DNA from: Pseudomonadota bacterium
GTDB lineage: Bacteria; Pseudomonadota; Alphaproteobacteria; Micavibrionales; UBA2020
Assembly (NCBI GenBank): GCA_021805245.1
Contig: JAJZFS010000063.1
Location: forward strand, 1-47,249
DNA length: 47,249 bases
Reading direction: 5' to 3'
Part shown: positions 19,222 to 45,976 of the stretch, in pieces
How the letters are laid out: each line of letters begins with the position of its first letter
Numbering within the stretch: the first letter of the stretch is position 1
Position numbers and translations under genes: made by a program
Notes under the pieces: model-generated
Seen by the model: only the letters and a program-made list of their open reading frames with translations
Databases searched by the model: none
Told to the model about the DNA's origin: nothing

Positions 19222-20922
19222 TCAGGCCTCGCGCACCGCGCTAAGGAACGTATTGACCGCCTCGCGCAGGTGATCGCCGTTTCTGGCGAGTTCTCCGGCG
19301 GCGGCAAGGACCTGTTCCGCCGTGATGCCGGTGCGCCTTGCGGCGTCGTTGACGGCAGCGATATTTCCGGAGACTTCACGCGTCCCCGTCGCGGCTTCCG
19401 TGACGTTGCGCGCGATCTCCTGCGTCGCGGAGCCCTGTTCCTCGACGGCGGCGGAAATGGCGACGGCTGTCTCGCGCACCTTTTCAATACTGCCCGTAAT
19501 ATCCTGAATGGCCGCGGCAGAGGCGGTGCTGGCCTCCTGAATATCCCTGATCTGCTGCCCGATCTCTTCCGTCGCTTTGGCGGTCTGCCCCGCAAGCGCC
19601 TTCACTTCCGAGGCGACGACGGCGAAGCCTTTGCCCGCTTCGCCCGCGCGCGCCGCCTCGATGGTGGCGTTGAGCGCGAGCAGGTTGGTTTGCGCGGCAA
19701 TATCGTTGATGAGCGCGATGATCGCGCCGATCTTCCCCGACGCGGCGGAAAGGTCATGAACCTTGGCGTTCGTGGCGGTCGTCTGCTCCGCAGCGCGTGA
19801 AATCTGGCTGCCGGAATCCCTGACGCGCTGCTCGATCTCGCGGATGGAGGCGGAAAGCTCTTCGGTCGCGGAGGCGACGGTCTGGACGTTCGCCGAAGCC
19901 TGCTCGGACGCGGCGGCAACGGCGCTGGAACGGCCCGTGGTTTCTTCCGCGGCGGCGGTCATGGTTTTTGCCGTGGTTTCCATTTCGGATGCGGCCGCGC
20001 TGATGGTCTGGGCGATGGCGGCGATGGCATTTTCAAATTCCCCGACAAGGCGGTCGATGTTTTGCGCGCGCGCGAGCTGCTTTTGCTGCTCGGCGGCCTG
20101 TTCGGCGCGCAGGCGTTCGGCTTCCATGCCGTTGTTTTTGAAGACGGCGACGGCGCGCGCCATGATGCCGATTTCGTCCGCGCGGTCGGCAAACGGCACC
20201 TCCGCCTCGTAATCCTTATCGGCCAGACGCCCCATGACGTCCGTCATCTTGCCGAGCGGGCGGCTGACGACGCGGCTCATCAGCATGCGGATCGCCAGCA
20301 CGCCCGCAATGGCGGCCAGCAGACCGGAAACAGCCATGAGAACGAGGATCATCCTGAGCTTCGCGAAAGCCGTGCCGGTCTTCAGGCTGCTGGAAAAGAC
20401 GGCGATGACGTCGCCGTCCTTTTCGCCCATCGCCGTGTGGCAGGTGTGGCAGACAGGCTGATTGGCGCCCGGCGTCACGCCGAGGATGATCGGCAGGCTA
20501 TAGCGGTAGGCGCCCTTGACGAACCGCCCGACGGGTTTTTTGGTTTCAAGCACCTGCTTGTCGATCGCGTCGCGCACGGGGCGCGGCTTGACGTCGGGAT
20601 AGGCCTTGGCGGTAAAATCGAGCGTCTTCGGGCTCCAGGCGCTCCACAGCTTGCCCTTGTAGTCGTTGTTGCGCTGCTTGTACCAGCTGTAATAGACGTT
20701 GATGGCGGCGGGATCGTCGGTGCGGCGCTCCATCGTCGCGATCACAAGCGCGCGCATTGACTGCAATTCGTTGTGCGAGAGTTTTTCGAATTTGTCCTGC
20801 ATCTGCGTGTATTGCAGCCCCGCCACGGCCGCCAGCGTGGCGCAGACGATGGCAAGAATGCCCGCACCGGCAATCACCATAAACCGGCTTTGCAGTTGCA
20901 GATTTTTCCACCATTTTTTCAT
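19222..20922 (-). CDS. Methyl-accepting chemotaxis protein with a periplasmic haem-c-type sensor
   Basis: 566 residues. Membrane segment 1 about 15-36; periplasmic domain 37-190; membrane segment 2 about 190-213; HAMP about 210-262; then a long cytoplasmic signalling coiled coil with the conserved hairpin tip ([19 protein letters not shown]) and [20 protein letters not shown]. The periplasmic domain contains CHTCH (158-162), a CxxCH covalent haem-binding motif, in a context ([10 protein letters not shown] before, [15 protein letters not shown] after) like the DUF3365/Tll0287-type haem sensor. It probably senses redox state or a gas and controls motility through CheA/CheW. There are no che genes nearby. 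GGGGGA precedes the ATG. Confidence 0.88.
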
Positions 20923-21034: not shown

Positions 21035-21319
21035 CTAGTAATAGCTGCAGGTTTTTGTGCAGAAGGCGGAACTCTGTCCGGAACTCAGGCAGGACTTCAG
21101 ACAACGGGGGTCAGCCGTATTGCCGCCGGCTTTTCTCTGTACTTCCGGATCGTACGAGCAGCGCGTCTGGCAATAGTCTTCTTCAAAACCCCGTTGCGTG
21201 CAATTGTTCAGGCACCAGCTGTCGGTACCCGCTCCTTTCGGCTTGTGCAGCACCAGCATGGCGACAAAGAACGCGGCAAGGATGCCGAAACCGATGATGG
21301 GAATGAGATCCTTCTTCAT
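21035..21319 (-). CDS. Small membrane-anchored protein with two CX3C-X9-CX3CSY modules
   Basis: 94 residues from ATG at 21319 (AGAGG six bases upstream; a TTG two codons earlier is possible). Residues 6-25 form one membrane helix with a positive N-terminus (MKKD), so the rest is probably periplasmic. The periplasmic part holds an internal duplication: Cys36/40/50/54 and Cys73/77/87/91, each spaced CX3C-X9-CX3C and followed by Ser-Tyr. Eight evenly placed cysteines suggest two disulfide-locked helical hairpins. I recognise no family. Neighbouring genes give no functional hint. Confidence 0.68.
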   Translation of the reverse strand: MKKDLIPIIGFGILAAFFVAMLVLHKPKGAGTDSWCLNNCTQRGFEEDYCQTRCSYDPEVQRKAGGNTADPRCLKSCLSSGQSSAFCTKTCSYY

Positions 21320-21400
21320 GCACAACCTCTGACGCGTTTTTGTGCGTCATAACTATTCTATAAGGGAATAAGAGGGCGTCAAAGGGAAAAATGCCGCGCG

Positions 21401-22396
21401 TCAGGCGGCAGCCTGCGCGAAACCGACCATTTTTTTGCGCTCATCGTCCCACAGCGCCAGCCGGAAGCAGGCGGGAATATCGCGCAGGGTTCTTTTGCGC
21501 ACGTCCTGTAGCACGGTGATCTGCGCGAAACACTGCCGCAGACGATAGAGCGGTATGTGTCCGTTGAGGTGGTGGATATGGTGCAGATTGATATTGCCGA
21601 CCAGCCAACTGACGGGACGGGAAAACTCGAAATAGGAACTGCCCAGAAGGCCGGCGTCGAAATAACTCCATGCGTCCTTCTTTCGCCAGTAGGCGTCTTC
21701 ATACTGGTGCTGGATATAGAACATCACGATACCGAGCGAACTGCCCAGCCAGACCACCGGCAGGTACACGAAGAAGAAGCCCTGCCAGCCGAAAAAATGC
21801 ACCAGCCCCGCGATGCCGAGCAAAATCGCGGCATTGGTCAGCATGACGTTCTTCCACATTTTCACCGAATGAAACTCGCAGTCGAGCGGCAGGCGGTGCT
21901 TGACGCCGAACAGCAGCACCGGCGCGACGAAAATCAGGAACAACGGCGCGCGGTAAATCCTGTACCACAGCTTTTTAAAGGGAGACGCCGCGCGGTATTC
22001 CTCCACGGTGAAGGTATCGACGTCGCCGACGCCGCGCTTGTCGAGATTGCCGGAAAAGGCGTGATGGACGCTGTGATTTTTCTTCCAGTAATAATAAGGC
22101 GTGAGCGTCAGCACCCCGAGCGCGCAGCCCACGGCATTGTTGACCTTTTGCGATGAAAAATAGGAACCGTGTCCGCAATCGTGCTGGATGGTGAAAAGGC
22201 GCGTGATCATCACGCCCGCGACCGGCAGCAGCGCGAACATCAGCCACAGCCCGTGCGCGAGGCCATAGAGCATCAGACCAAAGGCGGCCGCAAACAACCC
22301 GAACGTCACGCCCAGGTCGCGCAAAGCGGTCCTGTTGTCCGGCACGGCATATTCCTTGATATGCCCCAGCAATTCGCGCTCTTTTTCAATCTCCAT
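21401..22396 (-). CDS. Membrane fatty-acid desaturase
   Basis: 331 residues from ATG at 22396. The three histidine boxes of the di-iron membrane desaturases are present: HDCGH (72-76), HSVHH (108-112) and HHIHH (272-276). Hydrophobic segments around 30-65, 85-100, 150-165 and 185-225 fit the usual four-helix layout. It would insert a double bond into a membrane lipid acyl chain; the position is not readable. The frame is open 35 codons further upstream (hydrophobic, AT-rich); that start is not excluded. A TATAAT on the minus strand near 22475 could drive it. Confidence 0.85.
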   Translation of the reverse strand: MEIEKERELLGHIKEYAVPDNRTALRDLGVTFGLFAAAFGLMLYGLAHGLWLMFALLPVAGVMITRLFTIQHDCGHGSYFSSQKVNNAVGCALGVLTLTPYYYWKKNHSVHHAFSGNLDKRGVGDVDTFTVEEYRAASPFKKLWYRIYRAPLFLIFVAPVLLFGVKHRLPLDCEFHSVKMWKNVMLTNAAILLGIAGLVHFFGWQGFFFVYLPVVWLGSSLGIVMFYIQHQYEDAYWRKKDAWSYFDAGLLGSSYFEFSRPVSWLVGNINLHHIHHLNGHIPLYRLRQCFAQITVLQDVRKRTLRDIPACFRLALWDDERKKMVGFAQAAA

Positions 22397-23167: not shown

Positions 23168-23623
23168 ATGTCAAAGAAGAAGATAAAACTCGACCGCAAG
23201 CCGGGATTGTACCTCAAGGACACCGGCCACAAGGGGCGCGGCGTGTTCTGCACGCAGGACATCCGCAAAGGCGAAATTCTCGAAGTCACGCCGACCATCA
23301 TCCTCAACAAGTCCGCAAGCGAAGCGATCGAGGACACGATCCTCGGCAACTACGTTTTCCAGATCGGCGCCATTTCAAAGGCGCACCGCAAGCAGCTCGG
23401 CATCACGGACATATCGAAGTGCTGCGGCGTGATTATGGGGATCATCTCCTACTTCAACCACGCCGAAAAGCCCAACGCCGGGGTGGAATGGGAAGAGCAC
23501 GACGGCACGCTCTACCATCAGGTGCGCGCGCTCAAAAACATCCCGAAAAACACAGAAATTTGCACGACCTACGGCGGCGGCTGGTTCAAAGACCGCAAGG
23601 ACACGATCAAGCATCACAAATAA
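23168..23623 (+). CDS. SET-domain protein (putative lysine methyltransferase)
   Basis: 151 residues made almost entirely of a SET domain. KGRGVFCTQDIRKGEIL (22-38) is the SAM-proximal start; YFNHAEKPNAGVEW matches the NHxxxPN pseudoknot motif; and EICTTYGGGW matches the final ELxxxYG element. SET proteins methylate lysines using SAM; bacterial substrates are largely unknown. There are no pre-SET or post-SET cysteine clusters. The ATG follows an extremely A-rich run (from about 23150) with no true Shine-Dalgarno sequence. It is divergent from greB and convergent with cobT (14 bases between stops). Confidence 0.85.
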   Translation: MSKKKIKLDRKPGLYLKDTGHKGRGVFCTQDIRKGEILEVTPTIILNKSASEAIEDTILGNYVFQIGAISKAHRKQLGITDISKCCGVIMGIISYFNHAEKPNAGVEWEEHDGTLYHQVRALKNIPKNTEICTTYGGGWFKDRKDTIKHHK

Positions 23624-45199: not shown

Positions 45200-45976
45200 T
45201 TATTTTCCCTCTTGCTTGCCCGTTTTCGCGAGGCCGGCGACGACCTCTTCGAACTTCGTCACGGGCCAGCCGCCGCGCAACTTGGCAGCGCCGTCATTAA
45301 AGATAAAGGTCGGCGTGGCGTCGATCTTGTACTTGTCTTGGGCTTTTTTCATGTTCGTGATGATGGCCGTTTCCAGATCCTTGTTTTCCGTGCAGGCCTT
45401 GAACTGGCTGGCATCCATGCCCGCAAGGCTGCCGAGCTGCTGCAACGCGGCCATCGGGTCCTTGGCGGCGAGCCAGCGTTTCTGGTTGGCGAAAAGCACG
45501 TCCAGCATATCGAAGTACTTCAGCGGAGACACGCAACGCGCCATCATCGCCGCTTTGAGGGCGGCCCCGTCCAGCGGAAAGTCGCGGAAGACCAGCTTGG
45601 CCTTGCCGGTGTCGAGCAACTGATTTTTGACCTGTGGCAGGACCACCATATCGAACTCCGCGCAGTGCGGGCAGGTGAGCGAGGCATATTCGGTGATGGT
45701 GACCGGCGCATTCGGGTTGCCGAGGACGCGGTCTTTCATGACAGTGGCCACGTCGATCTGCAGGCTTTTCGGCGCGGCGAGGAGATTGCCGTTCGCGGGG
45801 GCCGTTGTTTCAGCTTTCGCCGGAGTCGGAGCCGGAGCGGTCGCTGCCTTTGCGGCTGGCGGAGCGGGCGGCGTTACGGCCTGCGCACCGGCGGAGTTTG
45901 ACAGAAAGAGTGAAAGTGCGCACAGAACAAGAAGTGCGTTCGCAAAAATAGCCAGACGTTTGCCGATGTTCAACAT
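45200..45976 (-). CDS. Exported DsbA-like thiol oxidoreductase
   Basis: 258 residues. The signal peptide is about 1-31 (LLVLCALSLFLSNSAGA); a Pro/Ala-rich linker runs to about 62; then comes a thioredoxin fold with CPHC (102-105) and the cis-proline loop DATPTFIF. It would act on disulfides in the periplasm; the CPHC pair is the oxidase-like DsbA active site. GAAGGA precedes the ATG. It lies directly upstream of smc, an arrangement I recall from other alphaproteobacteria. Confidence 0.9.
   Translation of the reverse strand: MLNIGKRLAIFANALLVLCALSLFLSNSAGAQAVTPPAPPAAKAATAPAPTPAKAETTAPANGNLLAAPKSLQIDVATVMKDRVLGNPNAPVTITEYASLTCPHCAEFDMVVLPQVKNQLLDTGKAKLVFRDFPLDGAALKAAMMARCVSPLKYFDMLDVLFANQKRWLAAKDPMAALQQLGSLAGMDASQFKACTENKDLETAIITNMKKAQDKYKIDATPTFIFNDGAAKLRGGWPVTKFEEVVAGLAKTGKQEGK

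What the first reader, a model, noticed from the sequence alone, without database searches (positions are those of the whole stretch)
21035..21319. Anchored protein with a duplicated CX3C-X9-CX3CSY module
Two copies of the same eight-cysteine-forming spacing follow one membrane helix. The geometry recalls twin-CX3C/CX9C helical hairpins of mitochondrial small Tim and CHCH proteins, but in a probably periplasmic bacterial protein. I know no bacterial family like it.
Basis: partly seen in the sequence, partly recalled or inferred. Interest (0 to 1): 0.58.

Follow-up and report, generated by a model that had tools for sequence, protein, structure and literature searches.

The report
Membrane-anchored tandem disulphide-hairpin protein
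The window holds a small membrane-anchored protein with two probably disulphide-locked helical hairpins, and the same unnamed hairpin module turns up in other bacteria and in phages, where it sometimes sits right behind the lysogeny repressor gene.

Summary
In detail: a 94-aa ORF on the minus strand (21319 to 21035) has an N-terminal membrane helix followed by two CX3C-X9-CX3C-SY modules. It is a real gene. All eight cysteines are invariant in four complete relatives. Relatives occur in 5 of 8 genomes of its genus, and the gene has its own conserved promoter.

It is not isolated. The module occurs in four more proteobacterial genomes (2 to 3 copies per protein) and in 21 distinct small, mostly signal-peptide-bearing proteins on IMG/VR viral contigs. 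In 4 of these 21 the gene sits directly behind, or one small gene behind, an HTH/S24 repressor gene.

AlphaFold predicts two helix-loop-helix hairpins. The cysteine motif matches the alpha-hairpinin definition, not small Tim spacing (11-16) or twin CX9C. No Pfam or NCBIfam model reaches its cut-off, and no PHROG matches convincingly.

Best reading: a DsbA-oxidised periplasmic binding scaffold of alpha-hairpinin-like units. Prophage copies plausibly act in superinfection exclusion; chromosomal copies may have related envelope roles. The fold class is moderately supported; the function is inference.

The parts
21035..21319 (-). 94-aa membrane-anchored protein with two CX3C-X9-CX3C modules (stop codon included)
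   Evidence: relatives; all eight Cys invariant in A1
21248..21307 (-). hydrophobic helix, residues 5-24, probable uncleaved signal anchor
   Evidence: 20-residue uncharged run, best mean Kyte-Doolittle 2.69, no Ala-X-Ala after it; model helix 7-23
21158..21214 (-). module 1, C36-C54, CX3C-X9-CX3C
   Evidence: profile A3 E 4.6e-12 (the module is itself a row of A3); helices 34-42 and 47-53
21047..21103 (-). module 2, C73-C91, CX3C-X9-CX3C, three residues from the C-terminus
   Evidence: profile A3 E 4.3e-9 (also a row of A3); helices 71-79 and 84-90
21355..21382 (-). own promoter: TTGACG, 16 nt, TAGAAT, with TTATTCC in the spacer
   Evidence: near-identical in G005, G004, G002 although the upstream gene differs; weaker version upstream of both G007 copies
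21392..21410 (-). terminator-like hairpin after the desaturase gene, separating it from this gene
   Evidence: consensus match only

Best explanation
The gene encodes a small inner-membrane-anchored periplasmic protein. Its exposed part is two helix-loop-helix hairpins, each locked by two disulphides between facing CX3C pairs (an alpha-hairpinin-like unit). The unit is a transferable envelope module present in 1 to 3 copies, secreted or anchored. It is oxidised by the host DsbA/DsbB system and presents a rigid, fast-changing surface that binds a partner in the envelope. In temperate phages the gene can sit behind the lysogeny repressor, the position of lambda rexAB (recalled) and near that of the Streptococcus superinfection-exclusion lipoprotein Ltp. 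The most likely job of those copies is to protect the lysogen's envelope against incoming phage. The chromosomal copy of this genus is most likely a related envelope-protection or binding protein. SHOWN: gene, conservation, promoter, family. PREDICTED: fold, anchor. INFERRED: disulphides, periplasmic side, binding function, anti-phage role.
For: Eight invariant cysteines and a conserved CX3C-X3-G-X5-C-X3-C core. All 48 regex-found modules in 31 proteins have X9 (the phage ones were partly selected by that spacing). Pattern enrichment in viral contigs: 26 stretches against 1 for the reversed control, 12 of the 26 being plausible small secreted proteins. AlphaFold hairpins for the window protein (block pLDDT 71-90 over modules and linker) and for a phage relative (weaker). 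Weak profile hits to helical hairpins of known structure: Ole e 6, Tk-hefu-11, kappa-hefutoxin. Repressor-adjacent phage genes L051, L053, L067, L069. DsbA and DsbB in the genome. Own promoter. Faster protein change than neighbours: dN 0.20 / dS 0.35, against dN 0.026-0.055 / dS 0.18-0.32 for four flanking genes.
Against: Foldseek and VIA-align found no match. PDB profile hits are E 0.06 or worse with A1, and the second profile (A3) hits defensin and scorpion alpha-toxins instead. Only 4 of 21 phage proteins are next to a repressor, and three of those (L053, L067, L069) come from related phages; others lie in replication, terminase or unannotated regions. In G356 and G164 the gene abuts an exosortase-associated ATPase gene, and in G818 a CHASE2 cyclase gene, which points to non-phage roles. 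The chromosomal gene's neighbours are ordinary chromosomal genes, not phage genes.
Confidence: 0.4

Rival explanations
1. An envelope accessory or sensor co-factor, not a defence protein: the module binds a ligand, polysaccharide or partner and helps signalling or exopolysaccharide export.
For: In G356 and G164 the gene overlaps or directly abuts a gene matching the XrtA/PEP-CTERM ATPase model TIGR03015 (272 and 271 bits, below its cut-off of 324.5), with an exosortase XrtD and an export protein nearby in G164. In G818 it overlaps a CHASE2 adenylate/guanylate-cyclase gene. In G901 it is next to a gene with a weak dCache match. In the window and in G005 the next gene is an MCP.
Against: Neighbours differ between lineages. 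In G004 and G002 the MCP and/or desaturase are absent beside the gene, and it keeps its own promoter. The phage copies examined have no such neighbours.
Confidence: 0.3
2. A secreted antimicrobial or toxin-like peptide of alpha-hairpinin or defensin type, acting on other cells.
For: Cysteine motif matches alpha-hairpinins (PMC11591084); weak Pfam hits to Ole_e_6 and defensin models.
Against: The window protein looks anchored, not released. I saw no candidate immunity gene. All Pfam hits are below cut-off.
Confidence: 0.1
3. A metal- or thiol-binding periplasmic protein, with cysteines reduced or ligating metal rather than disulphide-bonded.
For: Eight cysteines in CX3C pairs; one very weak Vanabin-2 match in G901 (E 0.59).
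Against: Oxidising compartment with DsbA and DsbB present; the CX3C-X9-CX3C hairpin geometry fits disulphides; no conserved His in the module alignment.
Confidence: 0.1
4. A bacterial relative of small Tim or CHCH proteins, tied to the mitochondrial ancestor.
For: Helix-loop-helix with CX3C pairs; one weak zf-Tim10_DDP match in phage protein L042 (E 0.013, 15.4 bits against cut-off 22.3).
Against: Spacing of 9 against 11-16; no hit for the window protein; no Tim chain in PDB profile searches; narrow, scattered alphaproteobacterial distribution.
Confidence: 0.03

Closest known systems
Alpha-hairpinins (plant antimicrobial peptides; motif C1-X3-C2-Xn-C3-X3-C4)
   Same: Same cysteine motif (n of 4-20 accepted in PMC11591084 Table 1; 9 here), predicted helix-loop-helix, secreted. 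Modular multi-unit precursors are recalled.
   Different: Bacterial and phage proteins, membrane-anchored in this genus, conserved G and CSY signature; no significant sequence match shown.
Kappa-KTx scorpion toxins (kappa-hefutoxin 1, PDB 1hp9; 6ats)
   Same: CX3C-X9-CX3C visible in the printed alignment for 6ats; helical hairpin fold (recalled).
   Different: E 0.9 to 2 only; ion-channel toxin function.
Ole e 6 pollen allergen (PF09253, PDB 1ss3)
   Same: Best Pfam match of the window protein (E 6.9e-5, 23.2 bits).
   Different: Below the curated cut-off of 27.7; six-cysteine plant protein (cysteine count recalled).
Small Tim proteins (twin CX3C)
   Same: Disulphide-stabilised helix-loop-helix with CX3C pairs (PMC5584982 passages).
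   Different: 11-16 residues between pairs; mitochondrial; chaperone complexes; no profile match to the window protein.
Superinfection-exclusion lipoprotein Ltp (S. thermophilus phage TP-J34)
   Same: Small membrane-anchored protein with a repeat domain; gene in the lysogeny region beside the CI repressor genes (PMC3952083 passages).
   Different: Lipid anchor; no homology shown; function proven for Ltp and unknown here.

Membership tests
Alpha-hairpinins | CX3C-X4-20-CX3C cysteine motif | tested here: met
   X9 in both modules and in 48 of 48 regex-found modules; definition from PMC11591084
Alpha-hairpinins | two antiparallel helices joined by a loop | tested here: inconclusive
   Predicted helix pairs in both models, but no Foldseek or VIA match and no coordinates to measure
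Alpha-hairpinins | C1-C4 and C2-C3 disulphides (recalled) | not testable with these tools
   needs mass spectrometry or a structure
Alpha-hairpinins | significant sequence similarity to known members | tested here: not met
   PDB profile E 0.62 for Tk-hefu-11; PMC11591084 says the family can be heterogeneous with only the cysteines conserved
Small Tim (PF02953) | twin CX3C separated by 11-16 residues | tested here: not met
   9 residues here; range from PMC5584982, which also reports trypanosomal members beyond 16
Small Tim (PF02953) | match to the Tim10/DDP model | tested here: not met
   no hit at E up to 10 for the window protein; L042 below cut-off
Twin CX9C / CHCH | two CX9C motifs, one per helix (recalled) | tested here: not met
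   X9 spans the loop between CX3C pairs; no CHCH model hit
Ole e 6 (PF09253) | score over curated cut-off | tested here: not met
   23.2 against 27.7 bits
Prophage superinfection-exclusion proteins | gene expressed from the prophage, in the repressor region | tested here: inconclusive
   4 of 21 phage proteins behind an HTH/S24 repressor gene; the window gene is chromosomal
Prophage superinfection-exclusion proteins | blocks infection by other phages | not testable with these tools
   needs a plaque assay

The most novel reading that the evidence does not exclude
A phage-spread, so far unnamed family of tandem disulphide-locked helical hairpins works in the bacterial envelope as superinfection-exclusion proteins of temperate phages, and bacteria such as this genus carry fast-evolving, domesticated versions as chromosomal anti-phage defence.
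Probability: 0.2. Interest if true: 0.75.

Novelty: new variant of a known kind. Interest (0 to 1): 0.5.

Why it matters
Cysteine-locked helical hairpins are known from plants, animal venoms and mitochondria. A family of them in bacteria and phages, absent above cut-off from Pfam and NCBIfam and without a convincing PHROG for the members scanned, would extend the class. It would also give a small testable candidate for envelope-level phage exclusion, and a tiny Dsb substrate in Gram-negative bacteria.

Tried and rejected
Small Tim and CHCH kinship: rejected on spacing and model searches.

Operon with the desaturase or MCP: rejected as general. The gene keeps its own promoter, and those neighbours are missing beside it in G004 and/or G002.

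Weak class and order hits G029, G307, G144, G137, G108, G095 and G407, and G032 and G513, and the weak hits G054, G036, G052, G037, G029: dropped, because the match is partial, cut by stop codons or in a frame without the module.

Pattern hits dropped as chance or wrong frame: 14 of 26, 6 of 21, 1 of 15, 57 of 73 (one of these, L164, is a 25-aa piece that may be real) and 34 of 43.

tblastn in the phage and plasmid collections gave no match in eight searches. Fold searches were uninformative. The desaturase dN/dS value is a frame error and is not used. The 'G at C2+4' count is an indexing error; the statement on G rests. Literature searches for bacterial or phage relatives of this motif showed none in their listings.

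Full report
WHAT IS THERE. The finding's coordinates hold a 94-aa ORF on the minus strand (21319 to 21035). It has a 20-residue hydrophobic run and two CX3C-X9-CX3C-SY modules that use all eight cysteines. In 200,000 shuffles of the mature part two such units arose 8 times. The spacing as a bare DNA pattern is common in the genome (52 hits, 22 in the reversed control), so the case rests on conservation.

IT IS A REAL GENE. Relatives were found in 5 of the 8 genomes of the genus that were searched, counting the window's own; one genome has two copies, and one copy (G002) is cut by a contig end. No strong match was found in the rest of the 142 genomes of the order. At 33-67% identity all eight cysteines are invariant in four complete relatives. 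The locus is conserved: in G005 the order desaturase, this gene, MCP is kept; in G004 and G002 the gene lies in the same neighbourhood with some of these genes missing. A promoter (TTGACG, 16 nt, TAGAAT, with TTATTCC in the spacer) is nearly identical in four genomes although the upstream gene differs, and a weaker version precedes both G007 copies. Against G005 the gene has dN 0.20 and dS 0.35, while four neighbours have dN 0.026-0.055 and dS 0.18-0.32. It therefore changes faster than its surroundings but keeps its cysteines. Named relatives in genome contigs are metagenome-assembled genomes titled Proteobacteria or Rhodospirillales bacterium.

IT BELONGS TO A WIDER FAMILY. Profiles of the module found four more genomes: G356 and G164 (same class as the window's genome, two modules each), G818 (two modules, the second with CX4C) and G901 (three modules). 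With profile A3 the hits were 5 of 398 genomes of the phylum sample, all accepted. In IMG/VR a strict DNA pattern gave 26 stretches against 1 for the reversed control; 12 of the 26 encode small secreted-looking proteins with the module. Together with four more pattern scans there are 21 distinct proteins (17, plus L163, L169, L182, L193). They carry one or two modules, usually at the very C-terminus, and most have an N-terminal signal-peptide-like stretch with an Ala-X-Ala-like end. The genus proteins instead have a longer hydrophobic run without such an end, so they look anchored. IMG/VR contigs are predicted viruses; hosts are unknown.

FOLD. AlphaFold gives two helix pairs for the window protein (mean pLDDT 75.7; blocks of 71-90 over modules and linker) and for phage protein L062 (65.8). 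Both used shallow alignments (17 and 18 rows). Foldseek and VIA-align found nothing. Profile A1 against PDB sequences gave only weak hits, mostly to helical hairpins (Ole e 6, Tk-hefu-11, kappa-KTx) plus a defensin mutant; profile A3 gave weak hits to a plant defensin and scorpion alpha-toxins. The cysteine motif fits the alpha-hairpinin definition (PMC11591084, Introduction section and Table 1 passage) and not the usual small Tim spacing of 11-16 (PMC5584982, passages). For the family members scanned, no Pfam or NCBIfam family reached its curated cut-off and no PHROG had an E-value below 2.

CONTEXT. In phage contigs L053, L067 and L069 the gene is the next gene after an HTH or HTH/S24 repressor; in L051 one small lipoprotein-like gene lies between. 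L053, L067 and L069 share downstream genes, so these are about two independent cases. Others lie near DnaB, helicase, exonuclease or terminase genes. This position recalls the Ltp superinfection-exclusion gene beside the CI repressor genes (PMC3952083, passages) and lambda rexAB (recalled). In bacteria the neighbours differ: a TIGR03015-like ATPase in G356 and G164, a CHASE2 cyclase in G818. DsbA-like and DsbB-like genes exist in the window's genome, so oxidation is plausible.

READING. Shown: a conserved gene with its own promoter-like element, a recurring module, invariant cysteines. Predicted: anchor and hairpins. Inferred: four disulphides, periplasmic side, binding role, anti-phage role of the repressor-linked copies. 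The function of the chromosomal gene remains the weakest step; an envelope sensing or export role is a serious rival.

NOVELTY. The structural kind is known in eukaryotes. A bacterial and phage family of tandem units appears undescribed in the listings of the searches made, which cover open-licence papers only.

Noticed in passing
window 19225-20922 (-): Methyl-accepting chemotaxis protein (HAMP and MCP signal domains) whose sensor part holds PVCHTCH, a CXXCH c-type haem motif (motif recalled).
   Followed up: no
window 21330-21349 (-): Inverted repeat TGACGC...GCGTCA in the leader of the gene, extended by matching changes in G005 but absent in G004 and G002.
   Followed up: partly
window 45512-45700 (-): DsbA-like match in the same window, 24 kb from the gene; two more in other contigs.
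   Followed up: partly
window 23168-23620 (+): Stand-alone SET-domain protein in a bacterium, kept near the gene in G002, G004 and G005.
   Followed up: no
L093 6015-7305; L094 6795-8079: Two-module protein overlapping or abutting a TIGR03015-like ATPase gene in two families, next to exosortase and export genes in L094.
   Followed up: partly
L163 2539-2688; L182 1252-1422: Phage versions with a fifth and sixth cysteine flanking the module, perhaps a third disulphide.
   Followed up: no
L080 4346-4636 (-): CsrA-like small protein (by eye) directly upstream of a phage single-module gene.
   Followed up: no
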